The position numbers and the translations under genes were made by a program. A stretch of 64,000 bases of DNA from an uncultured Elusimicrobiales bacterium (lineage in GTDB: Bacteria > Elusimicrobiota > Elusimicrobia > Elusimicrobiales > Elusimicrobiaceae): contig CALUXE010000004.1 in NCBI GenBank assembly GCA_944324675.1, forward strand, positions 1 through 64,000. Direction: 5' to 3'. How positions within the stretch are numbered: the first letter of the stretch is position 1; each line of letters starts with the position of its first letter. Shown here piece after piece: positions 7,701 through 23,995 of the stretch. The notes under the pieces are model-generated. The model was given only the letters and a program-made list of their open reading frames with translations, was not told the origin of the DNA and did not search any database.

Positions 7701-8867
7701 GTGCAGATAGTATCGTTGAGCGACGGGGCGTGCACGGGCGCGAACGGGAGCGGTCGTGGTACGGTGTGCCGAGTATTGACGAAGACGACGATGGATAATT
7801 TGAGCACGATATATGACGGGAATATAGAGAACAAGCTGTACTGGGACGGTAAAGACGAGCAAGGCAACTACGTAAAGAGCGACGCTTATCAAGTGCGGTT
7901 TATAGCGGAGCCGTATCCGCAGGCTGAAGGGATAGGGCAGACGATAGAGTCCAGGATAATAAACGTAGACAACTTTCAGATATTTGACAGGTACACTACG
8001 GACGTGACGCGGGATAACGGGGGGATAGGGACGTTTGCGTATCAGGTATCGGTTCCGATGAAGGTGGCGATCCAGATATTTAAGCCGGGAACGATGACAA
8101 GCGGAGCGGCGGACGGGACATTGATAGATCCGGCGGATCCGACGGGTCCGGCGATAAACGAGAACAGTATAGACAAGGTATTGGTGAAGGCGATAATAGG
8201 GGTAAGCCCGCACTTAATACCGATAGAGAGGGTATGGGACGGAACGGATTACAGGGGGCAGCAGGTGCCGGACGGCATATATCCGTTCAGGTATGTGAGC
8301 GTATTGGACTCGTACGATATGGACAGCGTAAACGGGTCGATAAGGATAGATCGGGATCAGAGCGATGTAACGACGAAGGTAGCGGACTGGGACAAGTACG
8401 TGAATTTGGAGAACATCATGGTAGTGAACGGGGACAGCTGGTACGCGGACTTGGATTGGAAGAGCGATAAGGTGACGATGTTCTATCCGAACCCGTTGAG
8501 GCAGAGTTACGGACAATTTGAAATAACGAAGGTACCGGCGCCTGGCACGGTAAGCATAAAGATATACAATATAGCGGGCGATTTGGTAAGGGACGGCGGA
8601 TATGAGTGTATGAACGCGCGGGGAGTGACGAGCAGTTTGGAGCAGATAAACAACAGCGGCGGGATAGATCCGGACTGGACGACGAACACTGGCGGAGTGG
8701 GAGAAGTGGAAGGAGGCGGGAACTTTGCGTTAAGGTGCAAATGGGACCGGACGAACAATCACGGGAGGAAGGTAGCGAGAGGATTATACTATGCGATAAT
8801 GGAGCTTAGTCCGACGAGGGGCAATGCGGTGAAGTCGCAGAAGGTAATCAAGATCCTTATACCATAA
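4764..8867 (+). CDS. giant secreted FlgD-Ig-repeat surface protein, copy 1
   Basis: This 1367-aa protein has a signal peptide (cleavage expected after the MAQ region at about residue 24). The N-terminal segment of about 220 residues is cysteine-rich. Seven FlgD-like Ig modules follow, each marked by W-D-G/R...G...G-x-Y. The C-terminal module has a YPNP motif, an IYNIAGDLV strand and a WDRTNNHGRKVARGLYY end, resembling type A sorting domains of type 9 secretion cargo. The protein is identical to the 9068 copy after the signal peptide. It is probably displayed on the surface as an adhesin-like fibre; the function is unknown. It has its own leader upstream and no PorV-like gene directly behind it. 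Confidence 0.85.
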   Translation: MRKTLKFITIIAGLLIFGSELMAQTAMVTQNLVVYQPSSDKDDAHCQITDLDAAFNTPANNRSYSTATIQPVNSSDPWVNSALIEYSQITMGNRETGYNYTYPNSCLSLCAEVTCSNPARLVEGSDDSGTGTDTRIYTVKSGDFPIQSVLFEIFKYQQNGNPYNPDSTPPIRTIALYPTDGNNICYGVGVPSNSVENTSDCCSSINCEAHPTNACNTTSVNFCKGANNVTATAQANCRAGRTVLHFCAAWDGTYEIDGEFGQSNGDFGYRTTISSNWPGDGVSTPEIDISHTIVYPGENQIPIQVDVTNIHSVRSTPTLVGQKTAVTAQPYNINYRISKDATVTINIYDPSVGINQEDRLLVRNLVNNLPREGEGFQGGGVGSSEETITTMSEAWDGRDNEGRLLPFGNYVVSLRATSVDEWDQPGNNSFPKSDVSRTVMRQLSLDPLKITDIEAKGLSKTSTAYAMLNYILTEDATIHLEIYTPGTTFESININKISANNGTACTDGYCSWMNGAYAAPKVKNNSGYKVFSLTEQKAGRTKVNSKWDGMCWGDAQTCANAVQTVLTGSVVTGADASGVTDYSGVALPDGDYVYALWAEIPYNDTIDINTYRWDGVKTAVIESGILGINRGLPELTVGSVGYSTIGSSPVAHGLDPFIFTYALSRDAYVTAQVLTTSYDAGDNSSVGPYVVKTLLDNEIQTSASGGNKLSWDGIDDNGRYVTQGSYLFRVIARDSLYPTKVVTSTVEFPIDLFRVVDVQTTSLLEDSTSQATISYVLSKSMDVTLNIYDKDVVIPNDITADNWEPQVCPAGTDISSGKVQCIYRKGDDGRIIIDPTIEPIKSFTGARQGESRVTEFWDGYYEEDSSGGTTQAMYPDGFYPYYIYAKANVAGSKYYSTKTVGGSEVLVPQDPKQDEDSGFLSSINATDQPTGYITIARGPVYFTKIQITPSSPKLVYSSETIQIPTYEVLFGVTRTASVQVQIVSLSDGACTGANGSGRGTVCRVLTKTTMDNLSTIYDGNIENKLYWDGKDEQGNYVKSDAYQVRFIAEPYPQAEGIGQTIESRIINVDNFQIFDRYTTDVTRDNGGIGTFAYQVSVPMKVAIQIFKPGTMTSGAADGTLIDPADPTGPAINENSIDKVLVKAIIGVSPHLIPIERVWDGTDYRGQQVPDGIYPFRYVSVLDSYDMDSVNGSIRIDRDQSDVTTKVADWDKYVNLENIMVVNGDSWYADLDWKSDKVTMFYPNPLRQSYGQFEITKVPAPGTVSIKIYNIAGDLVRDGGYECMNARGVTSSLEQINNSGGIDPDWTTNTGGVGEVEGGGNFALRCKWDRTNNHGRKVARGLYYAIMELSPTRGNAVKSQKVIKILIP

Positions 8868-9067: not shown

Positions 9068-12000
9068 ATGAATAACAGAAACGATAAAAATGTTTTAAGA
9101 GAAATATCCGGCATATTTGCAAAAGCGGCAATGTTCGCTTTTGCATTGTTTTATGGGGCGCTTTTCGCAAACGCTCAGACGGCGATGGTAACCCAAAATT
9201 TGGTGGTCTATCAGCCGAGTAGTGATAAAGACGATGCCCATTGCCAAATAACGGATTTGGACGCGGCTTTTAATACCCCTGCCAACAACAGGTCCTATTC
9301 TACTGCGACCATACAGCCCGTAAACTCTAGTGACCCGTGGGTCAATTCCGCTTTGATAGAGTATTCCCAGATAACAATGGGTAATAGAGAGACAGGATAT
9401 AACTATACCTATCCCAATAGTTGTTTGTCTTTATGCGCGGAAGTAACCTGCAGCAACCCGGCCAGACTTGTTGAAGGTTCCGATGATTCGGGCACTGGTA
9501 CCGATACTCGAATATATACGGTAAAGAGCGGGGATTTTCCGATACAGAGCGTATTGTTTGAGATATTCAAATACCAGCAAAACGGCAATCCTTACAATCC
9601 CGATTCCACTCCGCCGATAAGGACTATAGCTTTATATCCTACGGACGGCAACAATATATGCTACGGCGTCGGCGTTCCCAGCAATAGCGTGGAGAACACC
9701 TCTGACTGCTGTTCTTCAATAAATTGCGAAGCCCATCCTACAAATGCTTGTAATACTACATCTGTAAATTTTTGTAAAGGGGCGAACAATGTTACCGCTA
9801 CAGCGCAAGCGAATTGTAGGGCCGGCAGAACGGTATTGCATTTTTGCGCGGCGTGGGACGGCACGTATGAGATAGACGGGGAGTTTGGGCAGAGCAACGG
9901 TGATTTTGGATACAGGACGACGATATCAAGCAACTGGCCCGGGGACGGGGTGAGCACTCCGGAGATAGACATTTCGCACACGATAGTATATCCCGGGGAG
10001 AACCAGATTCCGATACAGGTAGACGTAACGAACATACACTCTGTTAGGAGCACGCCTACGCTGGTAGGGCAGAAGACGGCGGTAACGGCGCAGCCGTACA
10101 ATATCAATTACAGGATAAGCAAGGACGCTACCGTAACGATAAACATATACGATCCATCTGTTGGGATAAATCAGGAAGATCGTCTGTTAGTAAGGAACCT
10201 GGTAAACAATTTGCCCAGGGAAGGTGAAGGCTTTCAAGGCGGGGGAGTAGGCAGCAGCGAAGAGACGATAACGACGATGTCCGAGGCTTGGGACGGCCGG
10301 GACAACGAAGGGCGTTTATTGCCGTTTGGCAACTATGTGGTAAGTTTGAGGGCGACGTCTGTAGACGAGTGGGATCAGCCGGGGAACAACTCTTTCCCGA
10401 AATCTGACGTATCTAGAACGGTAATGAGGCAGTTATCATTGGATCCATTGAAGATAACGGACATAGAGGCAAAGGGTTTATCGAAGACGAGCACGGCGTA
10501 CGCGATGCTGAACTACATATTGACGGAAGACGCGACTATCCATTTGGAGATATACACGCCGGGCACGACGTTTGAAAGTATCAATATAAATAAGATTTCA
10601 GCGAATAATGGGACAGCTTGTACGGACGGTTATTGCAGTTGGATGAATGGTGCGTATGCCGCTCCGAAAGTAAAGAACAATAGCGGTTACAAGGTATTTA
10701 GTTTGACTGAACAGAAGGCGGGCCGCACGAAGGTAAACAGCAAATGGGACGGTATGTGCTGGGGCGACGCGCAGACATGCGCGAATGCGGTGCAGACGGT
10801 ATTAACGGGGAGTGTCGTTACAGGCGCGGACGCGAGCGGGGTGACGGATTACAGCGGAGTGGCATTGCCTGACGGGGACTATGTATACGCGTTATGGGCG
10901 GAGATACCCTACAATGACACTATAGATATAAACACGTACAGATGGGACGGCGTCAAGACGGCGGTAATAGAGAGCGGGATATTAGGGATAAACAGGGGCT
11001 TGCCCGAGCTTACGGTAGGGAGCGTAGGGTATAGCACGATAGGGTCTAGCCCGGTGGCGCACGGATTGGATCCGTTTATATTTACGTACGCGTTATCAAG
11101 GGACGCGTATGTGACGGCGCAGGTATTGACTACGAGCTATGACGCGGGGGATAACAGCAGTGTAGGGCCGTATGTAGTGAAGACATTGCTGGACAACGAG
11201 ATTCAGACATCGGCTAGCGGCGGGAACAAATTATCTTGGGACGGTATAGACGACAACGGTCGGTACGTGACGCAGGGCAGTTATTTATTTAGGGTAATAG
11301 CGCGGGACAGTTTATATCCTACGAAGGTAGTGACGAGCACGGTAGAGTTTCCGATAGATTTATTTAGGGTAGTGGACGTACAGACGACGAGTTTATTGGA
11401 AGACTCGACGTCGCAGGCTACGATCAGCTATGTACTTAGCAAGAGCATGGACGTAACGCTGAACATATATGACAAGGACGTAGTGATACCGAACGACATA
11501 ACGGCGGACAATTGGGAGCCGCAGGTATGTCCGGCGGGTACGGACATAAGCAGCGGTAAGGTGCAGTGTATATATAGGAAGGGGGATGACGGCCGTATAA
11601 TAATAGATCCGACGATAGAGCCGATAAAGAGTTTTACTGGCGCGCGGCAAGGAGAGAGCCGGGTGACGGAGTTTTGGGACGGATACTATGAGGAAGACAG
11701 CAGCGGCGGCACTACGCAGGCGATGTATCCGGACGGATTTTACCCGTACTATATATATGCTAAGGCGAACGTAGCGGGGAGCAAATATTACAGCACCAAA
11801 ACTGTCGGCGGGAGCGAAGTATTGGTTCCACAAGATCCTAAACAGGACGAGGACAGCGGCTTTTTAAGCTCAATAAACGCTACGGACCAACCAACGGGGT
11901 ACATAACGATAGCGAGGGGGCCGGTATATTTTACGAAGATCCAGATAACGCCGAGCAGTCCGAAGCTGGTATACAGTTCGGAGACGATCCAGATACCTAC

Positions 12001-13210
12001 GTACGAGGTATTATTCGGGGTAACAAGGACGGCGAGCGTCCAGGTGCAGATAGTATCGTTGAGCGACGGGGCGTGCACGGGCGCGAACGGGAGCGGTCGT
12101 GGTACGGTGTGCCGAGTATTGACGAAGACGACGATGGATAATTTGAGCACGATATATGACGGGAATATAGAGAACAAGCTGTACTGGGACGGTAAAGACG
12201 AGCAAGGCAACTACGTAAAGAGCGACGCTTATCAAGTGCGGTTTATAGCGGAGCCGTATCCGCAGGCTGAAGGGATAGGGCAGACGATAGAGTCCAGGAT
12301 AATAAACGTAGACAACTTTCAGATATTTGACAGGTACACTACGGACGTGACGCGGGATAACGGGGGGATAGGGACGTTTGCGTATCAGGTATCGGTTCCG
12401 ATGAAGGTGGCGATCCAGATATTTAAGCCGGGAACGATGACAAGCGGAGCGGCGGACGGGACATTGATAGATCCGGCGGATCCGACGGGTCCGGCGATAA
12501 ACGAGAACAGTATAGACAAGGTATTGGTGAAGGCGATAATAGGGGTAAGCCCGCACTTAATACCGATAGAGAGGGTATGGGACGGAACGGATTACAGGGG
12601 GCAGCAGGTGCCGGACGGCATATATCCGTTCAGGTATGTGAGCGTATTGGACTCGTACGATATGGACAGCGTAAACGGGTCGATAAGGATAGATCGGGAT
12701 CAGAGCGATGTAACGACGAAGGTAGCGGACTGGGACAAGTACGTGAATTTGGAGAACATCATGGTAGTGAACGGGGACAGCTGGTACGCGGACTTGGATT
12801 GGAAGAGCGATAAGGTGACGATGTTCTATCCGAACCCGTTGAGGCAGAGTTACGGACAATTTGAAATAACGAAGGTACCGGCGCCTGGCACGGTAAGCAT
12901 AAAGATATACAATATAGCGGGCGATTTGGTAAGGGACGGCGGATATGAGTGTATGAACGCGCGGGGAGTGACGAGCAGTTTGGAGCAGATAAACAACAGC
13001 GGCGGGATAGATCCGGACTGGACGACGAACACTGGCGGAGTGGGAGAAGTGGAAGGAGGCGGGAACTTTGCGTTAAGGTGCAAATGGGACCGGACGAACA
13101 ATCACGGGAGGAAGGTAGCGAGAGGATTATACTATGCGATAATGGAGCTTAGTCCGACGAGGGGCAATGCGGTGAAGTCGCAGAAAGTGATAAAAATCCT
13201 TATACCATAA
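9068..13210 (+). CDS. giant secreted FlgD-Ig-repeat surface protein, copy 2
   Basis: This 1380-aa protein is identical to the 4764 product from the QTAMVTQNL residues onward. It carries a different, longer N-terminus: a polar stretch of about 20 residues, then a hydrophobic signal ending FANAQ. The domain layout is the same, with a cysteine-rich head, seven FlgD-like Ig modules and a YPNP sorting-like tail. The stop is followed after 18 bases by the PorV-like gene with no terminator between, so the two are co-transcribed. That makes this copy the one physically tied to a candidate outer-membrane partner. The different promoter and signal peptide suggest different expression or targeting. Confidence 0.85.
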   Translation: MNNRNDKNVLREISGIFAKAAMFAFALFYGALFANAQTAMVTQNLVVYQPSSDKDDAHCQITDLDAAFNTPANNRSYSTATIQPVNSSDPWVNSALIEYSQITMGNRETGYNYTYPNSCLSLCAEVTCSNPARLVEGSDDSGTGTDTRIYTVKSGDFPIQSVLFEIFKYQQNGNPYNPDSTPPIRTIALYPTDGNNICYGVGVPSNSVENTSDCCSSINCEAHPTNACNTTSVNFCKGANNVTATAQANCRAGRTVLHFCAAWDGTYEIDGEFGQSNGDFGYRTTISSNWPGDGVSTPEIDISHTIVYPGENQIPIQVDVTNIHSVRSTPTLVGQKTAVTAQPYNINYRISKDATVTINIYDPSVGINQEDRLLVRNLVNNLPREGEGFQGGGVGSSEETITTMSEAWDGRDNEGRLLPFGNYVVSLRATSVDEWDQPGNNSFPKSDVSRTVMRQLSLDPLKITDIEAKGLSKTSTAYAMLNYILTEDATIHLEIYTPGTTFESININKISANNGTACTDGYCSWMNGAYAAPKVKNNSGYKVFSLTEQKAGRTKVNSKWDGMCWGDAQTCANAVQTVLTGSVVTGADASGVTDYSGVALPDGDYVYALWAEIPYNDTIDINTYRWDGVKTAVIESGILGINRGLPELTVGSVGYSTIGSSPVAHGLDPFIFTYALSRDAYVTAQVLTTSYDAGDNSSVGPYVVKTLLDNEIQTSASGGNKLSWDGIDDNGRYVTQGSYLFRVIARDSLYPTKVVTSTVEFPIDLFRVVDVQTTSLLEDSTSQATISYVLSKSMDVTLNIYDKDVVIPNDITADNWEPQVCPAGTDISSGKVQCIYRKGDDGRIIIDPTIEPIKSFTGARQGESRVTEFWDGYYEEDSSGGTTQAMYPDGFYPYYIYAKANVAGSKYYSTKTVGGSEVLVPQDPKQDEDSGFLSSINATDQPTGYITIARGPVYFTKIQITPSSPKLVYSSETIQIPTYEVLFGVTRTASVQVQIVSLSDGACTGANGSGRGTVCRVLTKTTMDNLSTIYDGNIENKLYWDGKDEQGNYVKSDAYQVRFIAEPYPQAEGIGQTIESRIINVDNFQIFDRYTTDVTRDNGGIGTFAYQVSVPMKVAIQIFKPGTMTSGAADGTLIDPADPTGPAINENSIDKVLVKAIIGVSPHLIPIERVWDGTDYRGQQVPDGIYPFRYVSVLDSYDMDSVNGSIRIDRDQSDVTTKVADWDKYVNLENIMVVNGDSWYADLDWKSDKVTMFYPNPLRQSYGQFEITKVPAPGTVSIKIYNIAGDLVRDGGYECMNARGVTSSLEQINNSGGIDPDWTTNTGGVGEVEGGGNFALRCKWDRTNNHGRKVARGLYYAIMELSPTRGNAVKSQKVIKILIP

Positions 13211-13228: not shown

Positions 13229-14215
13229 ATGAAAAACAATAAATATATTAAGCTTTTAACGATAGTGACAATATTTTCCCTGCTTGGCGTCTGGGCGGAA
13301 GCCGCGGGCCCTTATGAAAGAGCAGGCACCAGCGCTAGTGCTTTTTTGAAACTCGGCACCGGCGCGCCTGAAGCCCAAGCTTTGGGCAATGCCTATACGG
13401 CGCTTTCAAGCGGGGCGCAGGCATTGTTTTGGAACCCTGCGGGTATAGCCACCAGCACCACTAGAGAAATACAGGTTTCCCATATGCAGTGGTTTGAGGG
13501 CGTTGGCGACAGCGCCGTAGGTTATATCCAACCGATAGGCAAAACTGTTCTGGGTGTAAGTTTAAGGTATATGCGTTTATCCGGAGACGACCTTAACCCC
13601 AGAGATCCGGGCGGCATACCTTACGATATTACGGGCGACGCGATACGGGACTTTGTGGCGGCGGTTTCTTTGGGAAGGACCTTCTTCGGCGTATTGGACA
13701 TAGGCGGTACTGCCAAGTATATCAATGAAGACAACGTCGGCGTAAAACATATCAATCCCGCATTTGATATCGGCGGTAAACTGAGAATATCCAACAACAG
13801 ATTTGTGATAGGCGTTATGGGACAGAACCTCGGAGATCCGGACGAAGTGCCCTCGGCTATCAGAGGCGGCGCCGCGATAAACACCAAATATTTTACGATA
13901 TCGGGCGAAATCGTGGATTATGTTGACGATAAATTGAGATACGGCGTCGGCCTTGCGATACATATTCCCGAGGAGCTGGTGCAAGTTGCCTCTTTTGACA
14001 TAAGGGTAGGTTACTATAACCGTGAGAACACGGGCTGGGCTGAAGAGGGCGACATAGCCGAAAAGATCGGCTTGGAAACGACTTCAAAGGTAACTTTGGG
14101 TTTCGGTTTTTACAGCAGCGAAGTCCTCGGATATGGATTGGGTCTTGACTACGCGATGATGCCTTCGGGCGCATTGGGTACGGCCCATCAATTGGCGGTT
14201 AGATTGCAGTTCTAA
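13229..14215 (+). CDS. PorV/PorQ-family outer-membrane barrel protein
   Basis: This 328-aa protein has a signal peptide (about residues 1-25). The next segment, with AFLKLGTGAPEAQALGNAYT and then ALFWNPAGIA, is the hallmark of the PorV/PorQ (FadL-like, UPF0164) family. The rest alternates short amphipathic strands and ends with an aromatic residue (VRLQF), as outer-membrane barrels do. In Bacteroidota PorV shuttles type 9 cargo by binding C-terminal sorting domains. Its place 18 bases behind a protein with such a domain suggests an analogous partnership here; this is inference. The Tad locus starts 30 bases downstream. Confidence 0.82.
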   Translation: MKNNKYIKLLTIVTIFSLLGVWAEAAGPYERAGTSASAFLKLGTGAPEAQALGNAYTALSSGAQALFWNPAGIATSTTREIQVSHMQWFEGVGDSAVGYIQPIGKTVLGVSLRYMRLSGDDLNPRDPGGIPYDITGDAIRDFVAAVSLGRTFFGVLDIGGTAKYINEDNVGVKHINPAFDIGGKLRISNNRFVIGVMGQNLGDPDEVPSAIRGGAAINTKYFTISGEIVDYVDDKLRYGVGLAIHIPEELVQVASFDIRVGYYNRENTGWAEEGDIAEKIGLETTSKVTLGFGFYSSEVLGYGLGLDYAMMPSGALGTAHQLAVRLQF

Positions 14216-14409: not shown

Positions 14410-14446
14410 TTTATAAGATGTTTTTATATTTCCGGAGGAGTTGTTT

Positions 14447-14659
14447 ATGATGAGAATGATTGCTAAAATGCACTTGGCTTACGCCAATGCGATCGAGACG
14501 GTCAGAAATAAAAAAGGCCAAAATACCATCGAATATCTGTTCATGCTCGGCATTATAGTGGTGGTGGTAGGTATAGTCGGCGGTTTGATTAAAACCTTTA
14601 TGCCTGAACTTTTCGACAGCGTAAAAGCGAAGATTATGGGAGAAGCGGGCAATCTGTAA
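14447..14659 (+). CDS. flp: Flp/Fap-type major pilin candidate
   Basis: This 70-aa prepilin has a long basic leader of about 24 residues ending NKKG, then QNTIEYLFMLGIIVVVVGIVGG, a perfect class III prepilin signature with Glu at +5. The ATG at 14447 is preceded by a strong GGAGGAG (14434-14440), six bases away; this is the strongest ribosome-binding site in the cluster and fits an abundant subunit. The upstream TTG at 14441 is less likely. No prepilin peptidase (TadV/CpaA) is in the window, so processing would need an enzyme encoded elsewhere. Confidence 0.85.
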   Translation: MMRMIAKMHLAYANAIETVRNKKGQNTIEYLFMLGIIVVVVGIVGGLIKTFMPELFDSVKAKIMGEAGNL

Positions 14660-14666
14660 TTTGACG

Positions 14667-15137
14667 ATGATAAAGAAACGTGATGGCCAAACGGTAATAG
14701 AGTTGATATTGATTCTGCCGGTATTCTTGATGATAATATTTGTCGTTTTGGAACTGGGGAATATGGCCTATCGCATGATTTTGGCGCATCACGTTTCTTA
14801 TGAGCTTGCGAGAGTAGGGTCTTTGGTGGGGGTGAGGAAGCACAGCGATAACACCGACAGCCAAAGAATAAACAGTAAAATGAAGGAAGCTCTTAACAAG
14901 ATGTTTGGTCAGCGCGGAGCGCAGAATATGCAATTTTCCGCGGTTCTGCAAAAGACCAGCAATGATCCGCAAGTAAAGAATCACGCTAATGAAGACTTGG
15001 TAGTGACGTTTGTATACAAAGTGCAGTTGTTGTTTCCTCTGACGAGTTATATTTTTGCCGATGAGCCCAAGCGTTTGGGCATAAAGAGGATAAAGGCGAC
15101 GGTAAGAATGCCGGTGGAGCGGCCGTTGCTTAATTAG
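14667..15137 (+). CDS. tadE: TadE-like minor pseudopilin
   Basis: This 156-aa protein has a short leader MIKKRDG, then QTVIELILILPVFLMIIFVVLELGN, the TadE/TadF motif with Glu at +5, and a soluble C-terminal domain. TadE-family pseudopilins are required for Flp fibre assembly. I prefer the ATG at 14667, six bases into the open frame that begins with TTG at 14661. It is separated by seven bases from the Flp gene. A GCCGC/GCGGC hairpin without a T-run follows the stop. Confidence 0.85.
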   Translation: MIKKRDGQTVIELILILPVFLMIIFVVLELGNMAYRMILAHHVSYELARVGSLVGVRKHSDNTDSQRINSKMKEALNKMFGQRGAQNMQFSAVLQKTSNDPQVKNHANEDLVVTFVYKVQLLFPLTSYIFADEPKRLGIKRIKATVRMPVERPLLN

Positions 15138-15223: not shown

Positions 15224-15982
15224 ATGAACAAAAAGAATATTATGCTTCCGGTAGTGATAGCTATAGCGGCGGCTTTAATATATTATTTTGTGCTTTACAT
15301 GGCGCAGGGTAAGATAAGAGAAACTTCCAAAATGGAAAAGGTGGCTGTAGCCGCGGTGGATTTGCCTGAGGGAAAAATGATAGTAAGAGGCAATATAAAA
15401 GAGATAGACATTCCCACTGCCTATATTCAGAAAGACGCTTATGTAATATCTAGGGGAGCGAATTTGAGCGACATAGAAAATTTGGTTACGAAAGTGGCCA
15501 TAGCGCGCGGCAATCAAATAACGAAGCCGTCGGTAACCAGTTTGAGCCCCGAATCGGGCATAAGTTTAAAGGTAATGCCGTCATACAGGGCATTTATATT
15601 GCCGGTCGATACGAACGTTTCGAGCTTAATAAAGCCGGAAGACAAAGTCGACGTGTTGCTTACTTTTGACGCCATGATAAAGAACGGCGGCGGCAAGGAA
15701 AAGATGACGGCGACGATTTTGCAGGATATACCGGTTCTCGGCGTTGGCGGGAACTTGGGGCAGGGCATGGATTCCGCTTCCAGAGCGGCGAACGCGGAGC
15801 GGGAGGCTAACAATGCGGCGTTTTCGGACAGGTCGGTATTAAGCTTGTCGGTATCGCCTGTGGAAGCGCAGTATTTGGCCTTGGCGCAGGAAGAAGGCGT
15901 GATTACGGTTATCGTAAGGTCTAACGGCGACAGGAAGGTATTGCCGATAGAGATATCCAGCTTCTCCAAGCTGTTCAGTTAA
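15224..15982 (+). CDS. cpaB: Flp pilus assembly protein CpaB/RcpC
   Basis: This 252-aa protein has an N-terminal transmembrane segment (residues 7-27) and a SAF domain (about 40-110, with VAAVDLPEGKMI and ITKPSVTSL). A periplasmic domain typical of CpaB/RcpC follows, ending in the SPVEAQYLALAQEEG helix. CpaB acts in the periplasm with the secretin during Flp pilus biogenesis. AAAGGAG lies seven bases before the ATG. It stands between tadE and the secretin, as in many tad loci. Confidence 0.88.
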   Translation: MNKKNIMLPVVIAIAAALIYYFVLYMAQGKIRETSKMEKVAVAAVDLPEGKMIVRGNIKEIDIPTAYIQKDAYVISRGANLSDIENLVTKVAIARGNQITKPSVTSLSPESGISLKVMPSYRAFILPVDTNVSSLIKPEDKVDVLLTFDAMIKNGGGKEKMTATILQDIPVLGVGGNLGQGMDSASRAANAEREANNAAFSDRSVLSLSVSPVEAQYLALAQEEGVITVIVRSNGDRKVLPIEISSFSKLFS

Positions 15983-16016: not shown

Positions 16017-16760
16017 ATGAAAAATCAGAAATATGTTTTAAAAGCTTTAACAATGATCTTAGCCTTTACGGCGCTGGCAATAAGCGCGGAAGCTAAGAAG
16101 ACGGAGTTGGTAGCCGTCAGCGCCGATATCGTAGAAATTAGCGGCTCCTTGACGACCTCTAAAGGCTTTGCGTGGAACCAGCTGCTGGATTTCAGCGAGA
16201 AAGAAATTCCGGGGATATTCTCGATAGGCGAGTTTGAGAGGAAGTCTTTGCTTACCACTCGTTTAAAACTTATGGAAAATGAGGGAAAGGCGCAAATACT
16301 TTCCAACCCGAAAGTTATAGCGCGCTCCAACACCAGCGCCAACTTTTCCGCGGGCGGGCAAATACCTTATCCCGTGGTAAGCGACAGGAACGTCGGCACG
16401 GAAATGAAGGAATACGGCGTTAAATTGGACGTAATGCCCACGATTATACCGGAAAGGAACAATATAATAATAGTGCAGTTGGAAATAGAGCTTTCCAACC
16501 CGGATTATTCCAGAAGTTTGACGATTAACGGTTCCACTGTTCCTTCAATGACGAAGAGATTTTTGAGATCCGAGGTCGAGCTCAACAGCGGCGAGACTTT
16601 GGTTATAGGCGGTTTAAAGAGCAGCACCAGAAGCGTCGCGGAAGACAGAGTGCCGATACTGGGCAAAATCCCCCTTATAGGATTGCTTTTCAAGAATAAG
16701 GATATAACGGAAGAACAAAGGTCTTTATTCTTGTTCATAACGGTAGAGATCGTGGAGTAA
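16017..16760 (+). CDS. minimal Tad secretin (CpaC/RcpA-like)
   Basis: This 247-aa protein has a signal peptide (cleavage near residue 26) and then essentially only one N-domain-like segment. It ends with the secretin C-domain: KAQILSNPKVIARSNTSANFSAGGQIP, GVKLDVMPTI and the terminal VPILGKIPLIGLLFK hallmark. RcpA/CpaC proteins are normally about 450-550 aa with BON and N modules, so roughly half is missing. It could be a genuine mini-secretin, or the N-modules may be supplied by another protein. There is no sign of a frameshift upstream within the 34-base gap to cpaB. Confidence 0.82.
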   Translation: MKNQKYVLKALTMILAFTALAISAEAKKTELVAVSADIVEISGSLTTSKGFAWNQLLDFSEKEIPGIFSIGEFERKSLLTTRLKLMENEGKAQILSNPKVIARSNTSANFSAGGQIPYPVVSDRNVGTEMKEYGVKLDVMPTIIPERNNIIIVQLEIELSNPDYSRSLTINGSTVPSMTKRFLRSEVELNSGETLVIGGLKSSTRSVAEDRVPILGKIPLIGLLFKNKDITEEQRSLFLFITVEIVE

Positions 16761-16764
16761 TAAT

Positions 16765-18984
16765 ATGGAAGAAACGCAGGGATTGTCCGGCTCACCAAGA
16801 GTAATAGCGTTTACCGGCCCGAAAGAGGGCGTAGGCAAAACGACGCTTGTGTTAAATTTGGCCATAGCTTGGGCTGAAATGCAAAAAAGGCCCGTGCTGA
16901 TAGTTCCTTTGGACCCTTTGGCCAGGCAGGAACATGGCTTTTATCTGGGAATAAGGAAGCCGGTAACGGTGGTAGATCTCGTGCGGGCGCTGGGCTCGGG
17001 CGCGATAGCGATAGCGGGCGGTCTTTTAAGAGGAAAAGTTTCGATGACTCAAGTGGGGGTAGGAGTTTTGCCTTTGGGTTCCACCAGACAGGAAGTATCG
17101 TTGATATCCCCTAAAATATTGCTGCCGATGCTTTCGAGGCTGCAGCAGACTTTTGACATATTTCTTGACGTCGATTCCAGTTTTCCCATGGAATCGTTCG
17201 CTTTTGATATAGCCGATAAGATTTTTTGGGTTACGAATTGTACCCGTTCACATTTAAATACCGCGGTATCGATGTTTACCGATTTTAAGGAAATGCATTT
17301 TCCTATTGACCGTATCGACATAATTTGCAATCAATACAATTTGCCCGGCGCCATAGACCACGAAGAGGTAAACCAATTCTTTATAAAACTCGGGCGCGAG
17401 CCGATAGTGTATCTTACTTGGGAGGAAAGCGTTTTCGAGTCCTCCAACAAGAGGGAAATAGAGATTTTGGTCAACCGCAGCTCCCTTTGGGTTCAGGAAG
17501 GTTTAAAACCTATTCTGAAGGTTATAGAAGATACCTCTACGATAGAGAAGAACTGGTCGACGGTAGTTCCCGACAGTGAATTTGTTTCGGCCGCCAAAAA
17601 CATATGGGAGGCCGCGCCTATATTGACAGGAAACGTGAAAGGGCCCAACCATTTTGATTCCGGCGATACTGAGCTGTCTTATTGGGATTCTTTAAAGCAG
17701 CAAGTGCATAAAGACGTTATTAAGACTTTGGAAGTAGAGCGTATAGTAATAAGCGAAGAAGGCTCCCAAAACGAACAGACCAGGAAACGAGTTTCCGTAA
17801 TTATAGACGAAGTTCTGCGCAAGAAGGCGAATGTACAGCTTTCGCGCGACCAAAAGATAAGGTTTATAAACGAATTATTGGACGAAATTTTGGGATTGGG
17901 GCCATTAGAGGCCTTGATGAGGGATCCGTCCGTCACGGAAATCATGGTAAACGCTTATGACAAGATTTTTATCGAGCAGAAAGGCAAGTTGACGCTTACG
18001 CGCTATAAATTCCGCAACAATGACCAAGTGGTGCAAGTGATAAAGAGGATAGTGGCGCCGTTGGGCAGGCGTATAGACGAATCCGTACCGTTGGTGGACG
18101 CGAGATTGAAAGACGGTTCCCGCGTAAACGCGATCATAGCGCCTTTGGCGGTTTCGGGCCCCTCGCTGACGATAAGGCGTTTCTCCCAAAAGCCGTTCGG
18201 GCCGGAAGATTATTATCGTTTTGGTACGATTGACCGGGATACGATGTACTTTTTGGAGAGCTGCGTTAAACTGAGAAAGAACATTATTATATGCGGCGGT
18301 ACCGGTACCGGTAAAACTACATTTTTAAACGCTTTATCCAGTTATATTCCCGAGAACGAGCGTATCGTTACGGTGGAAGATACGGCGGAGTTGAGGCTTC
18401 AGCAGGAGCACTGGGTTTCTTTGGAAAGCAGGCCGGCGAACATCGAGGGAAAAGGCGAGATAACGATTAAGGATTTGGTAAAGAACTGTCTGCGTATGAG
18501 GCCCGACCGAATAGTGGTCGGCGAGTGCCGCGGCGCGGAAGCTTTGGATATGTTGCAGGCGATGAACACGGGCCATGAAGGTTCTTTGGCTACGATTCAC
18601 GCCAACACTCCTCGCGACGGACTTACGCGTCTTGAGGCTATGTGCATGATGGCAAGCGCGGACTTGCCGATATGGGCTATCAGGGAGATGATTTCCTCGG
18701 CCGTAAACTTGGTGGTGCAGCTGTCCAGATTTTCCGACGGGAGTAGGAAGGTTACCTATGTAACGGAGATATGCGGGCAGAAAGACGGGGTAATACAAAG
18801 CAGGGATTTATTCCGCTATGTACAGACGGGCGTAAACAAAGATGGCAAGGTGGAAGGTACATTTGCGCCTACGGGCGATTTGCCGACATTCTTCCCCGAG
18901 TTTAAGGCAAAGGGTATAGATGTTCCCGAAGCTACTTTTGAGAGGAAAGAATCGGCGGCCAAAACGGAAGAGGCGGCCGCGTAG
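16765..18984 (+). CDS. TadZ-TadA fusion: MinD-like localiser joined to Flp pilus ATPase
   Basis: In this 739-aa fusion, residues 1-260 form a MinD/CpaE-like P-loop domain (GPKEGVGKT at 18-26). Residues about 310-690 are the CpaF/TadA secretion ATPase, with Walker A GGTGTGKT at 511-518, the VEDTAEL Asp box, Walker B with RMRPDRIVVGECRG, and the His box ATIHANTPRDG. TadA powers pilus assembly and TadZ recruits the machine to its site. In studied systems these are separate proteins encoded side by side, so here localisation and motor are covalently coupled. An acidic/alanine tail closes the protein. It is four bases from the secretin gene. Confidence 0.92.
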   Translation: MEETQGLSGSPRVIAFTGPKEGVGKTTLVLNLAIAWAEMQKRPVLIVPLDPLARQEHGFYLGIRKPVTVVDLVRALGSGAIAIAGGLLRGKVSMTQVGVGVLPLGSTRQEVSLISPKILLPMLSRLQQTFDIFLDVDSSFPMESFAFDIADKIFWVTNCTRSHLNTAVSMFTDFKEMHFPIDRIDIICNQYNLPGAIDHEEVNQFFIKLGREPIVYLTWEESVFESSNKREIEILVNRSSLWVQEGLKPILKVIEDTSTIEKNWSTVVPDSEFVSAAKNIWEAAPILTGNVKGPNHFDSGDTELSYWDSLKQQVHKDVIKTLEVERIVISEEGSQNEQTRKRVSVIIDEVLRKKANVQLSRDQKIRFINELLDEILGLGPLEALMRDPSVTEIMVNAYDKIFIEQKGKLTLTRYKFRNNDQVVQVIKRIVAPLGRRIDESVPLVDARLKDGSRVNAIIAPLAVSGPSLTIRRFSQKPFGPEDYYRFGTIDRDTMYFLESCVKLRKNIIICGGTGTGKTTFLNALSSYIPENERIVTVEDTAELRLQQEHWVSLESRPANIEGKGEITIKDLVKNCLRMRPDRIVVGECRGAEALDMLQAMNTGHEGSLATIHANTPRDGLTRLEAMCMMASADLPIWAIREMISSAVNLVVQLSRFSDGSRKVTYVTEICGQKDGVIQSRDLFRYVQTGVNKDGKVEGTFAPTGDLPTFFPEFKAKGIDVPEATFERKESAAKTEEAAA

Positions 18985-18996
18985 AAAGGACAAGCC

Positions 18997-20601
18997 ATGA
19001 AATTCCTAAAAAAGTTTTTGATAGCAGTTTTGATAAGCGGGACTTCTGCCGTCGCTTTGCATGCGCAGGGCATATTTACCGCAAACCAAAGCGACAGGAT
19101 AGCCTGCGCCAAAGAACGGCTATACGCGCTATACAATTTTTTGGACGCGTCTAAGCCTACCGATCAAAAAACTTTTGAGCCTGTGGCCTGCGGCAGCGGG
19201 GCCAAAGCCGTTCCCATGCCTAAATATCTTGATAAGCTGCTGCCGGAAATGGATATGAAAAGACTATGGCAGGTATCGGCGGGCGAAGGCGGCGCAATGG
19301 AGTATTACAGCGAAGCGGAGATGTGGCGCCAGCCGATAGGGCTTATCTTCAACTTTTTGGAATTGATGGAGCAGATAAACAGCGGCGGGGCTTATACTAC
19401 GGCCGACACGATAGAGCGTATAACTAAATTTAAGACGCAGATGATAGTGTATATCGACAGATTAAAGAGCCGCCCCTCAAATTATGAGCTGCGCGACAGT
19501 ATGGAAGGCCGCGGCCGTTCAATGATAGCAACGTTGGATTTAATAGACGCGGAGATGGGCAGCGTATTGGAATCGTTTAAGGTTTCGCCGTGGCTGTGGC
19601 GGAGTAGATTTAGAAAAGCAGTGATGGGAGTAGTTACATTATCCAACAGTCTGTACGGGGATATGGTAACGACCAAGCCTTTGGTAATGCCTGACCCAAA
19701 GAGTAAGCATAGCACCAATGATATAGCGATAACGATATTTATGCTGTTGGGTACGATATCCGTATTTATAAGCGGGTATATGCTGATTTCGGACAGGAAC
19801 GATCAAATATCCAAGGCCATAGGCCAGTATATGCAAAAGAGCTCTTTATGGGCGGAGGACTACAGCAGGCAATTCTTGGATATAAACGTAAAGTACATAG
19901 TATTGGGGACCTTGTTTTTCTTCTGCGTATTGGGCGCGCTGTTTGGCATGGGCGCCGGCGGATTTACCGGAGTGTTGATGTTTGCGGTATTTTTCGCGAT
20001 GGGTTTGACTTTTGGGTTGAAAATGCCGGGGATAATATTGGGCATATTGAAGAAACGCCGCGGCGAGAAAGTGAACGCCCAGCTGATGGACGCTTTAATA
20101 TTGCTGTCGAATTCTTTGAAATCGGGTATGGATATAGTCCAGGGCTTTGATATGGTATCAAGGGATTTAAAGCCGCCGATATCGGACGAATTTTCTTTGG
20201 TAATCAAAAACTACAAATTGGGCGCTCCGTTTGAGAAAGCTTTGGAAGGTATGGAAGACAGAATAGAATCAAGGCTGCTTTCGTATATGGTAAAGGCGAT
20301 AGTATTGCAGAGGCAAGTCGGCGGCAACTTAACGAAGATTTTTGAAAGGATAGTGGAAAATATAAGGGAAGAGAGCAAGCTGGAGGAGAAACTTCAGGCG
20401 ATGACGGCTCAGCAAAGGATACAGGCGATAGTCGTCGGTGTTATGCCGTGGGTAATGGTAGGCGTAATGTTTATGTTCCAGCCCGACACTATGATAAACT
20501 TCTATACTTCCACAATAGGCATAGTAGTGTTATTTATGTGTATAGTGTGGATAGGCATCGGTATCAAGTTGGTAAACAAATTAGGGGAAATAAAGGTATA
20601 G
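18997..20601 (+). CDS. tadB: TadB-like inner-membrane platform protein with extra N-terminal domain
   Basis: This 534-aa protein has a cleavable-looking signal (residues 1-23, ending ALHAQ), then about 220 residues with no recognised motif, predicted periplasmic. A transmembrane segment lies near residues 246-266, two more near 305-350, and then the T2SSF/GspF-type domain (LLSNSLKSGMDIVQGFDMV and LQRQVGGNLTKIFERI). It ends in two helices. Typical TadB is about 300 aa and lacks a secreted N-domain. It probably forms the platform with TadC for the TadA motor. The N-terminal addition is unusual. Confidence 0.85.
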   Translation: MKFLKKFLIAVLISGTSAVALHAQGIFTANQSDRIACAKERLYALYNFLDASKPTDQKTFEPVACGSGAKAVPMPKYLDKLLPEMDMKRLWQVSAGEGGAMEYYSEAEMWRQPIGLIFNFLELMEQINSGGAYTTADTIERITKFKTQMIVYIDRLKSRPSNYELRDSMEGRGRSMIATLDLIDAEMGSVLESFKVSPWLWRSRFRKAVMGVVTLSNSLYGDMVTTKPLVMPDPKSKHSTNDIAITIFMLLGTISVFISGYMLISDRNDQISKAIGQYMQKSSLWAEDYSRQFLDINVKYIVLGTLFFFCVLGALFGMGAGGFTGVLMFAVFFAMGLTFGLKMPGIILGILKKRRGEKVNAQLMDALILLSNSLKSGMDIVQGFDMVSRDLKPPISDEFSLVIKNYKLGAPFEKALEGMEDRIESRLLSYMVKAIVLQRQVGGNLTKIFERIVENIREESKLEEKLQAMTAQQRIQAIVVGVMPWVMVGVMFMFQPDTMINFYTSTIGIVVLFMCIVWIGIGIKLVNKLGEIKV

Positions 20602-21507: not shown

Positions 21508-22869
21508 ATGAAAAGAATATTATATATATTACCCATATTTGCGATTATGGCGCTTAGTCTTAACGCGGCGGATAGGCCGCTTAGAGAGCGGGGAAAAGAG
21601 GCCGGGATGCTTTTGGATTTGCAGAAGATATCTTTGGGCACGATTTCCAACGTGGAACAGAAGAAGCAGTATCTATCCACCGTACAGCTTGAGAAGCAGC
21701 GCATACAAAACTATACCCTTAGAATGGTATACGAGAACGCGTACGCTTTATACAGACGAGGGGACTATCAGAGGGCGCACGAACTTGCCAATGTTATTTT
21801 GAGCATAGATCCAAGTTTGACCAAAGCGCAGACTTTATCTAAAGAGGCGGGGCGTATGGCGACGTACGGGACCTTGTCGGAAGACGAGATAGTCAATATG
21901 AAGTATGAAGAAGGCATAAACTTGTACAAACACGGGCGATTGGTAGAGGCGCAGGGCAAATTTGAGGAAATATTGGTGCTCAGGCCGAACGAGAGCAAAG
22001 CTAAAGATTGGGTGAGAAGGATAGAAAACGAAATAGCCGAAGAACACACCCGCCGCGGTTATTACGCCTATAAGAACGGGGATTATAACGAGGCTTTAAA
22101 CCAGTGGTACAGCGTGCTTATAATAAAGAAAGAGGATGCGGGGCTTACGGCTAAGATAGCGGAAGTCGAGGCCGAGATGAAACGTGAAGAAAACGAAAAG
22201 ATTTTAAACAAGGCGTTTAACTTGTATTCGCAAGGCAAGCTGATACCGGCGTATAGAGAATTTGAAAAATCTTTGGAGATACAGCCCGGGGAGCAGCAAA
22301 CTCAGAAGTTTACGATGCAGCTAAAGGAGGAAATCGCCAAAGGTTATTTTGAGGCGGGCAACAAGGCCTATCGCAGTAAGAGATATAATACGGCGGTGGC
22401 TAATTGGAAAGAAGCGAAAAATTGGGGATACAATCAAAATGACGTCTCTATGAACATCAAGGCTGCGGAAGCCGCCAAGTTAAGAGCGGCGGCGCAAGCC
22501 AATAAGGTGGAGCGGAAACCTCAGCCGGAACCTATAGTGGAACCGCAGGAAGTCCCCGTAGCGATACCGGAGCCTATACCCACGAGCAATCTGGGCGGGG
22601 AGGATACTTCTCAGCCTATAGCGCAGCCGCAGGAAGCGGCAGCGAGCGATTTCCCTACTTCGACCTTAACGCAGCAGCCGGGTATGATATCCGAGGACGC
22701 CAGGCAGGCTTCCAACGAAAGGTATCTTATAGGGTTGAAATATTACTCCGACGGCGATTATGAAAGGGCAAAATCGGAATTTCAGGCGGCGTTGCAGCTT
22801 AATCCGGAAAATTCGGACGCGGCTTTGGGTTTAAAAAATATAGAGGCCAAGCTGAACAGCGGCAGGTAA
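21508..22869 (+). CDS. exported TPR protein of the Tad locus (TadD-like position)
   Basis: This 453-aa protein has a signal peptide (cleavage near residue 20), an N-terminal helical region and several TPR pairs (about 70-310). A proline/glutamate-rich linker (about 330-385, with PQPEPIVEPQEVPV) precedes one last TPR with YYSDGDYERAKSEF. In tad loci the TPR lipoprotein TadD supports secretin assembly. This protein occupies that slot but lacks a lipobox and is longer, so function is inferred from context. Confidence 0.75.
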   Translation: MKRILYILPIFAIMALSLNAADRPLRERGKEAGMLLDLQKISLGTISNVEQKKQYLSTVQLEKQRIQNYTLRMVYENAYALYRRGDYQRAHELANVILSIDPSLTKAQTLSKEAGRMATYGTLSEDEIVNMKYEEGINLYKHGRLVEAQGKFEEILVLRPNESKAKDWVRRIENEIAEEHTRRGYYAYKNGDYNEALNQWYSVLIIKKEDAGLTAKIAEVEAEMKREENEKILNKAFNLYSQGKLIPAYREFEKSLEIQPGEQQTQKFTMQLKEEIAKGYFEAGNKAYRSKRYNTAVANWKEAKNWGYNQNDVSMNIKAAEAAKLRAAAQANKVERKPQPEPIVEPQEVPVAIPEPIPTSNLGGEDTSQPIAQPQEAAASDFPTSTLTQQPGMISEDARQASNERYLIGLKYYSDGDYERAKSEFQAALQLNPENSDAALGLKNIEAKLNSGR

Positions 22870-22873
22870 GGAT

Positions 22874-23995
22874 ATGATAAAGAAGATAAGCATACGATGG
22901 TTTTTGTGGTTTTCGCTTGTAGCGGGATATGCGCTTATTTTAGGCGCGCTTTTATATTTCAATTTATTTAAAAGGGTTTTTGACACCAATTTGCAAAATC
23001 ATATAGTCAATATCGTAAGGACGAACGCCAATGTTTTAATAGAAGGTTTGGTGGGGCGCGATTTGATTACGATACCGGAAGTCGATTTAATATCGTCTTG
23101 GCCTAGGCACGACAACAGGATATCGAATATAGTTTATTTTAACGGGAACGGCACGATAAGATGGCATAAGGACGCGGGCAAGATAAGGATGTCTTTGGCA
23201 GAGTACCATCGCGGCGGGAACTTGGATACCGACGCCGTGTTGGAAGCCTTAAAGATGGGGGTGCCGCGGGTAATACTTAAAGACGACGGCTATTCCTATG
23301 AGATAGCGATACCGTTGAAAGCCAAGGACGGGAAAGTAGCGGGCGTAATAAGTTTCGACGTGTCAAGAGATCAAGTGAAATCGGAGATAAACAGGGCTTT
23401 GGTGAATTATTTGGCAGGCTCGATATTGATTTTTATCTTGATGGGCATTGTTCTTTATATATTCGTAATAAAGAACGTTACAAAACCGATACTTGCGCTT
23501 ACCGACAGTATAGAAAATATCTCTACCAAGAGTTTTCAGCTGGACTTTATGGAGCGCAATGACGAAGTAGGCGAATTGGCCAGAGCCGTACAAAGATTTT
23601 TAGGCAAGGTTAAAAAAGAGCTTGAGGAACGCGAGATATTGGATAAGAGCCGTCATCACTACGAGCAGGAATGGTGGTCTTCGGTCTTGGCGATAACGAT
23701 ACCCAAAGGCAGCAGGGCTTTGGTGGTGGACGAGAACAACAATGTCATGCACGCCAATTTTGAACTCGCGATAAAGAAAGAGGGGCCGATACATTTATTG
23801 GATATTTTTGGCGGGACGCAGCAGGATATAGTGCATATAGTGGGGCAGGCGATGGACAATCCCGGCAAGATATTCCGCGCGAAGACGCAAAGCGGCGGCC
23901 GAGCGTTTGGAATAAAGACTTTACAGCTTTCTTCTAAAGGCGGGATAGTCAGGACCGTAATTGTGCTGGAGCCTTTGCCCGCGGTAAAGAAGTGA
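22874..23995 (+). CDS. membrane receptor with cache-like sensor and HAMP, no kinase domain
   Basis: This 373-aa protein has a transmembrane helix (12-32), an extracytoplasmic sensor domain (about 35-170, ending in GKVAGVISFDVS), a second helix (about 178-200), a HAMP domain (KPILALTDSIENIS...NDEVGEL, about 205-260), a coiled coil and a PAS-like C-terminus (ALVVDENNNVMHANFEL). It has no HisKA, HATPase, GGDEF or MCP module. It could feed a signal to the kinases encoded downstream, or act directly on the pilus machine. Both readings are inference. Confidence 0.75.
   Translation: MIKKISIRWFLWFSLVAGYALILGALLYFNLFKRVFDTNLQNHIVNIVRTNANVLIEGLVGRDLITIPEVDLISSWPRHDNRISNIVYFNGNGTIRWHKDAGKIRMSLAEYHRGGNLDTDAVLEALKMGVPRVILKDDGYSYEIAIPLKAKDGKVAGVISFDVSRDQVKSEINRALVNYLAGSILIFILMGIVLYIFVIKNVTKPILALTDSIENISTKSFQLDFMERNDEVGELARAVQRFLGKVKKELEEREILDKSRHHYEQEWWSSVLAITIPKGSRALVVDENNNVMHANFELAIKKEGPIHLLDIFGGTQQDIVHIVGQAMDNPGKIFRAKTQSGGRAFGIKTLQLSSKGGIVRTVIVLEPLPAVKK

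What the first reader, a model, noticed from the sequence alone, without database searches (positions are those of the whole stretch)
16017..16760. Mini-secretin for a Tad pilus
The protein keeps the C-domain motifs, including VPILGKIPLIGLLF, but at 247 aa lacks most N-modules of CpaC/RcpA. Either the channel is unusually short or a separate protein supplies the periplasmic ring.
Basis: partly seen in the sequence, partly recalled or inferred. Interest (0 to 1): 0.55.

Follow-up and report, generated by a model that had tools for sequence, protein, structure and literature searches.

The report
Tad pilus secretin without periplasmic domains
Bacteria of the phylum Elusimicrobiota, many of them from guts, encode the outer-membrane gate of one kind of pilus as a stripped-down barrel without the usual periplasmic domains, which makes it testable whether those domains are needed to push a pilus out of a cell.

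Summary
Observation confirmed. Window 16017-16760 encodes a signal peptide plus a complete secretin C-domain, with no N-domain, BON or S-domain tail, inside a Tad operon. It is no local truncation: 124 of 133 distinct relatives have at most 50 aa of open frame before the model start, and the order CpaB, mini-secretin, TadZA holds in 10 of the 11 class families read, not in f6. In the class, 168 of 172 genomes with CpaB have a mini-level match, 0 of 17 without. In an unrooted tree the minis are one clade (0.975) and split off with CpaC-type secretins (0.945). The RcpA-type N-domain PF13629 is over cut-off in 0 of 294 genomes. CpaB, the known periplasmic ring protein, keeps its fold but lacks the C-terminal linker and hairpin that contact the secretin N-domain. 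Best reading: a short outer-membrane barrel served by the CpaB ring; how the two meet is inferred. New variant of a known kind. Whether other phyla have it was not settled.

The parts
16017..16760 (+). mini-secretin, 247 aa: signal peptide plus secretin C-domain only
16017..16094 (+). signal peptide, residues 1-26
   Evidence: read by eye; helix 2-23 in the model
14441..14659 (+). Flp-like pilin (class III signal peptide), TTG start as listed
   Evidence: PF04021 24.4 bits against cut-off 23.7
14661..15137 (+). TadE-like pilin
   Evidence: PF07811
15224..15982 (+). CpaB/RcpC, 252 aa, without the C-terminal linker and hairpin
15935..15979 (+). C-terminal tail of CpaB (KVLPIEISSFSKLFS), conserved in most class families
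16765..18984 (+). TadZ-TadA fusion (ParA-like plus T2SSE ATPase)
18997..20601 (+). TadB with about 230 extra N-terminal residues
20605..21495 (+). TadC
   Evidence: T2SSF
21508..22869 (+). exported-looking TPR protein in TadD-like position, no lipobox cysteine seen

Best explanation
This is the outer-membrane channel of the Elusimicrobiota Tad pilus, reduced to the membrane-embedded secretin C-domain. Shown here: an N-domain-less secretin, one clade through the phylum sample, encoded in the window and most class families directly after CpaB and before the TadZ-TadA motor. Inferred: it is exported, oligomerises into a double barrel of roughly 13-15 subunits, inserts by its amphipathic loop (VPILGKIPLIGLLF, role recalled) and does so without a lipoprotein pilotin; the periplasmic part of the conduit is the CpaB ring, as in P. 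aeruginosa RcpC. The RcpA N-domain and the RcpC linker and hairpin that meet in P. aeruginosa are both missing here, so the two rings must meet differently: most likely CpaB sits directly under the barrel, touching it through its short conserved tail, or the TPR protein bridges them.
For: Domain content. Conserved short length: 21 class proteins; 27 of 32 genomes of other classes and odd families; 124 of 133 distinct domains. Gene order in 10 of 11 class families read. Co-occurrence with CpaB, 168 of 172 against 0 of 17 (recounted). Tree: minis 0.975, with CpaC-type 0.945. Fold: the 40 PDB chains at E below 1e-12 are secretins or chains of secretin complexes by title; the resolved RcpA chain 8odn is itself 244 residues, TM 0.64 both ways. 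The profile match to RcpA ends at residue 371 of 426 (tag, if any, included), so the S-domain side has no counterpart. PF13629 over cut-off in 0 of 294 genomes, Caulobacter control positive. CpaB match to the RcpC chain ends at 208 of 280; no canonical hairpin. RcpC ring and its linker/hairpin contact with the RcpA N-domain: PMC12307814 (passages).
Against: No experiment and no complex prediction. N3 is cited as required for pore assembly of bacterial GspD in PMC8134430 (passages). In the other classes the mini is mostly not beside CpaB, and neither is it in class family f6. The CpaB tail motif is missing in the class genomes G067 (f6) and G226 (f11) and altered in a second CpaB of G291; other classes have a helix-like end or none. 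Four class genomes have a CpaB match without a mini (G228, G240, G251, G261), as has G029 outside it. A Photobacterium CpaB (267 aa) is short too although its secretin has the N-domain. The midpoint root of the tree falls between the minis and all other secretins, so loss inside the Tad lineage depends on the rooting. The AF2 model is moderate (pLDDT 77, pTM 0.52).
Confidence: 0.6

Rival explanations
1. A separate, sequence-divergent protein supplies a periplasmic ring in place of the N-domain, as CpaI or the mitochondrial GspDN proteins do. Candidates: the TPR protein, the TadB extension, the HAMP-domain protein, or an unknown gene elsewhere.
For: Precedents: CpaI in Caulobacter (PMC13170226, passages) and split GspDN (PMC8134430, passages). 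TPR genes lie near the mini in several other-class loci (L100, L101, L105, L227, L228, L229, L233, L234). The TPR protein matches the TPR part of the Amuc_1098 secretin family (2.5e-6). TadB carries a new N-terminal extension in most class loci.
Against: PF13629 over cut-off in 0 of 294 genomes, five sub-threshold hits; BON in 0 of 13 genomes of the genus searched; Secretin_N in the own genome only in the other secretin. The TadB extension is absent outside the class and in f6 and f11, while the mini is present there. TPR similarity may be generic, and no TPR hit lies near the mini in L223-L225 and L235-L237.
Confidence: 0.26
2. The mini-secretin does not serve the Tad pilus alone or at all: it mixes with a full-length secretin or exports another cargo, for instance the large FlgD-like-repeat protein encoded upstream.
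For: The FlgD-like gene and a PorV-family gene stay upstream of the pilin gene in class loci; every one of the 32 genomes except G023, G129, G001, G008, G121 shows a further, longer secretin or fragment in that listing.
Against: Position between CpaB and TadZA, co-occurrence with CpaB, tree position with CpaC-type secretins; five genomes show the mini as their only listed match.
Confidence: 0.1
3. Truncation, pseudogene or assembly error.
For: One relative, G269, has the gene split over two frames.
Against: Same length across the phylum sample and 46-74% identity between the window protein and 20 class relatives.
Confidence: 0.01

Closest known systems
RcpA/CpaC, Tad pilus secretin (P. aeruginosa 8odn; CpaC of Alphaproteobacteria)
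   Same: C-domain, Tad operon partners, joint group in the tree (0.945)
   Different: no PF13629 N-domain (present in 5 of 5 plasmid-borne secretins scanned), no N3/BON, about 55 C-terminal residues of the RcpA chain without counterpart
PilQ, GspD, HofQ secretins
   Same: C-domain fold and sequence
   Different: these carry several N-domains (recalled; frames 433-654 aa) and fall outside the mini plus CpaC group
Mitochondrial GspD of jakobids, heteroloboseans and relatives (PMC8134430, passages)
   Same: N-domains missing; pores formed by a truncated C-domain
   Different: [quoted passage not shown] other system, other lineage
CpaI of Caulobacter (PMC13170226, passages)
   Same: shows that an RcpA-N-like domain can be a separate protein bridging CpaC and CpaB
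   Different: no PF13629 protein was found in the own genome or over cut-off in the phylum sample

Membership tests
Secretin superfamily (PF00263) | complete C-domain above cut-off | tested here: met
   141.8 bits against 27.5, profile 2-169 of 169
RcpA/CpaC Tad secretin, narrow sense | C-domain groups with CpaC-type secretins | tested here: met
   unrooted split 0.945; the group also holds two unannotated plasmid secretins and one from a T3SS locus; rooting untested
RcpA/CpaC Tad secretin, narrow sense | N-terminal PF13629 domain | tested here: not met
   absent; 0 of 294 genomes over cut-off
RcpA/CpaC Tad secretin, narrow sense | N3 or BON domain before the barrel (P. aeruginosa RcpA lacks N3 itself, PMC10499894, passages) | tested here: not met
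   none found
RcpA/CpaC Tad secretin, narrow sense | C-terminal S-domain for the TadD pilotin | tested here: not met
   window protein ends at the last position of PF00263; RcpA match ends at 371 of 426
Tad pilus system | CpaB, TadA, TadB, TadC, pilin genes together | tested here: met
Tad pilus system | outer-membrane multimer passing a pilus | not testable with these tools
   needs experiment
CpaI-like separate N-domain | PF13629 protein elsewhere in the genome | tested here: not met
   whether PF13629 itself detects CpaI was not tested, though Caulobacter as a whole is positive

The most novel reading that the evidence does not exclude
A whole phylum extrudes Tad pili through a secretin with no periplasmic vestibule at all: a bare outer-membrane barrel docked directly on the CpaB ring, in most of the class by a short tail peptide, showing that secretin N-domains and pilotin binding are dispensable for pilus passage and barrel assembly.
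Probability: 0.38. Interest if true: 0.72.

Novelty: new variant of a known kind. Interest (0 to 1): 0.56.

Why it matters
Secretins are usually described as needing N-domains for assembly and for coupling to the inner membrane. Here both sides of that contact, the secretin N-domain and the CpaB linker and hairpin, are missing together in a phylum-wide lineage, which gives a natural minimal system to test what the N-domains are for. One member, Elusimicrobium minutum, is cultivable (recalled).

Tried and rejected
Fused N-modules in relatives: long frames (up to 684 aa) were followed up. Of the nine distinct minis with more than 50 aa of extra frame, six (L039, L040, L042, L044, L045, L046) run open through the overlapping CpaB gene in another frame, one (L047) runs on from CpaB in the same frame for want of a stop, and two (L208, L213) carry about 60-70 aa more, unexplained. 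Other long-frame rows (G110, G124, G199, G239, G282) were judged from coordinates only or, for G124, not checked.

TadB extension as replacement ring: dropped as a general answer because other classes and class families f6 and f11 lack it. BON: present in three order relatives (G025, G078, one weak hit in G084), none in the 13 genus genomes.

A regex census of the 80 named loci missed 43 of 80 and was replaced by a profile census. Dropped there: identical domains, and for the tree minis at or above 75% identity to one kept (39 of 133 kept). The bit-score split was not clean (canonical CpaC also scored high), so the yardstick and full-length rows were set apart by locus. The 133 are distinct domain sequences, fragments included, not genomes; several genomes enter by two routes.

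CpaB tail count: 63 of 66 distinct tails match a loose pattern that I wrote after seeing the tails, so the count describes and does not test. Left out of it: proteins whose model match ended early, and a locus list that held not only other classes but also the class genomes G067 and G226, which lack the motif, and a second CpaB of G291 in altered form (L111). Of the three misses, two carry the motif shifted or slightly altered and one is the stop-less frame of L047.

Mini-secretins outside Elusimicrobiota: not answered. The 8 plasmid loci fetched all hold longer secretins (405 aa or more as frames or annotated genes); two of them (Caballeronia, Novosphingobium) are unannotated and were judged by frame.

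Papers: the listings of searches showed no description of this short secretin; most hits were not opened. Tad systems in Elusimicrobia are noted in PMC6668835 (passages); Tad-like regions of E. proavitum and E. minutum in PMC8809381 (passages). An earlier count said 13 families; the right number is 8 (f1, f2, f7, f8, f10, f12, f13, f14).

Full report
What is there. The ORF at 16017-16760 encodes 247 aa: a signal peptide followed at once by the secretin C-domain. Pfam sees Secretin at residues 86-247, to the last profile position. The preceding CpaB gene ends at 15982, so no N-module can hide upstream. The operon is Flp-like pilin, TadE, CpaB, mini-secretin, TadZ-TadA fusion, TadB, TadC, TPR protein. 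The genome (G000, 1.40 Mb, 17 contigs) has one other secretin, 532 aa, with a Secretin_N domain, on contig C1.

Who has it. The 80 best of 503 relatives in the genome scan are mostly titled Elusimicrobi-, some are unnamed MAGs and one is titled Micrarchaeota. G032 is a single contig of 1,643,562 bases, the size I recall for Elusimicrobium minutum Pei191; G023 (1,588,979 bases) I recall as Endomicrobium proavitum. In 20 fetched regions from 19 genomes of 8 class families the order CpaB, mini, TadZA, TadB, TadC holds as far as the contigs reach (L047 and L053 end in or after TadZA). Two more families (f5 L242, f11 L239) show it too, while f6 does not (L107, L240, L241). Families f3, f4 and f9 have no CpaB match in the genomes listed. 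A profile search of 32 genomes, chosen by me from other classes and odd class families, gave minis in 27 (frames 234-335 aa, the split copy of G269 apart; best E 3.9e-42 or lower), while the longer secretins (frames 352-774 aa) reach 1.4e-30 at best; three short fragments score lower still. Without a mini: G030, G051, G122, G039, G029. Over all loci, 133 distinct mini domains were found; 124 have at most 50 aa of open frame before the model start. The other nine are explained in Tried and rejected.

Link to the Tad machine. The class sample has 189 genomes; 172 have a CpaB match at E 0.001 or better and 168 of these a mini-level match (E 1.7e-34 or lower; the next value is 1.4e-22); none of the 17 without CpaB has one (recounted). 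The exceptions are G228, G240 and G261, with weak CpaB matches (2.3e-9 to 2.7e-5), and G251 with a strong one (3.7e-18). Outside the class the mini is mostly not next to CpaB, but in several loci near TPR, TadA-like, TadE-like or pilin-like genes.

Origin. A FastTree of HMM-aligned C-domains puts 39 minis in one clade (0.975) and splits them off together with CpaC-type secretins (0.945) from GspD, HofQ and the 8 full-length Elusimicrobiota secretins used. The CpaC side also holds two unannotated plasmid secretins and one from a T3SS locus. The tree is unrooted; the midpoint falls between the minis and everything else, the sampling is small and the alignment was made to the mini profile. So one loss of N-domains inside the Tad lineage is the simplest reading, not a proof. 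A single-sequence search scores PilQ slightly better than RcpA; the profile scores RcpA better than PilQ, and an Acidithiobacillus secretin (8jvb) best.

Where the periplasmic domains went. Five plasmid-borne secretins scanned, three of them next to cpaB genes, all carry PF13629. In 294 Elusimicrobiota genomes that domain is over cut-off in none, with five sub-threshold hits, while the Caulobacter control is positive. BON is absent from 13 genomes of the genus. So neither a fused nor a recognisable separate RcpA-type N-domain was found; a strongly diverged one cannot be excluded.

The partner. In P. aeruginosa, RcpC (CpaB) forms a dodecameric periplasmic ring whose C-terminal linker and hairpin meet the RcpA N-domain (PMC12307814, passages). 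The window's CpaB keeps the RcpC fold (model pLDDT 91; best fold match 9gzr, E 2.8e-11, TM 0.42-0.55, rmsd about 10), but the similarity to the RcpC chain ends at residue 208 of 280, and the class proteins stop some 13-17 residues later. In most class families that end is conserved, of the kind [ML]EI[AS][ST]FxKLF; it is missing in G067 and G226 (limits in Tried and rejected). CpaB proteins of other classes end in a helix-like stretch or stop early. The Photobacterium CpaB is also short although its secretin has the N-domain, so a short CpaB alone does not predict a mini-secretin.

The other end. The mini stops where the C-domain stops; the RcpA chain has about 55 more residues, in the region where TadD binds according to PMC10499894 (passages). 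The TPR proteins of the class loci show, by eye, signal peptides without a lipobox cysteine at the cleavage site. This fits loss of the pilotin contact too, by inference.

Structure. AF2 on 39 minis gives a mostly beta monomer, pLDDT 77, pTM 0.52. The 40 PDB chains matched at E below 1e-12 are secretins or chains of secretin complexes by title; the resolved RcpA chain (244 residues) aligns over 240 columns, TM 0.64 both ways, rmsd 7.6.

Mechanism. Most likely the mini-secretin is the pilus channel, a bare barrel, with the CpaB ring beneath it. How the two connect is open: the CpaB tail in most of the class, or the TPR protein, are the leads. Precedents exist for truncated C-domain secretins in mitochondria (PMC8134430, passages) and for a separate N-domain protein in Caulobacter (PMC13170226, passages).

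Novelty. The listings of the paper searches named in Tried and rejected showed no description of this variant, though Tad systems in Elusimicrobia are known. It is a secretin and sits with the Tad lineage, but it fails the N-domain and S-domain tests for an RcpA/CpaC protein in the narrow sense; I file it as a new variant.

Noticed in passing
window 4764-8867 and 9068-13210: Two tandem FlgD-like-repeat genes 99.88% identical over 4048 bp (5 mismatches) but with different signal peptides: recent duplication, gene conversion or assembly artefact.
   Followed up: partly
window 13229-14215: PorV/PorQ-family gene (NF033709, 77.8 bits, under the cut-off of 90) between the FlgD-like gene and the pilin gene, kept in class relatives; the FlgD-like protein has a weak T9SS-sorting-domain-like end.
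   Followed up: no
window 16765-18984: TadZ and TadA form one fused protein here and in the class; frames of about 590-730 aa with TadA matches are common in other classes too.
   Followed up: partly
window 18997-20601: TadB has a signal-peptide-like start and about 230 extra N-terminal residues, conserved in most class loci but not in f6, f11 or other classes.
   Followed up: partly
window 22874-23995: Membrane protein with a HAMP domain and no recognised output domain, kept beside the Tad genes in the class: perhaps a pilus-linked sensor.
   Followed up: no
L047:8871-10424: In one second-copy Tad locus (G274) both stop codons between CpaB and the mini-secretin are absent, giving one 517-aa open frame.
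   Followed up: partly
L184: A contig of a MAG titled Micrarchaeota carries a mini-secretin of Elusimicrobiota type, probably a mis-binned contig.
   Followed up: no
L230, L233, L234 (other-class loci): Beside the mini-secretin lies an ATPase frame of about 360-410 aa that matches only the TadA half of the TadZ-TadA fusion.
   Followed up: no
L208 and L213 (f16, f18): Minis with about 60-70 extra residues between signal peptide and C-domain, of unknown nature.
   Followed up: no
G269:C271:31184-31916: Mini-secretin split over two frames: pseudogene or sequencing error.
   Followed up: no
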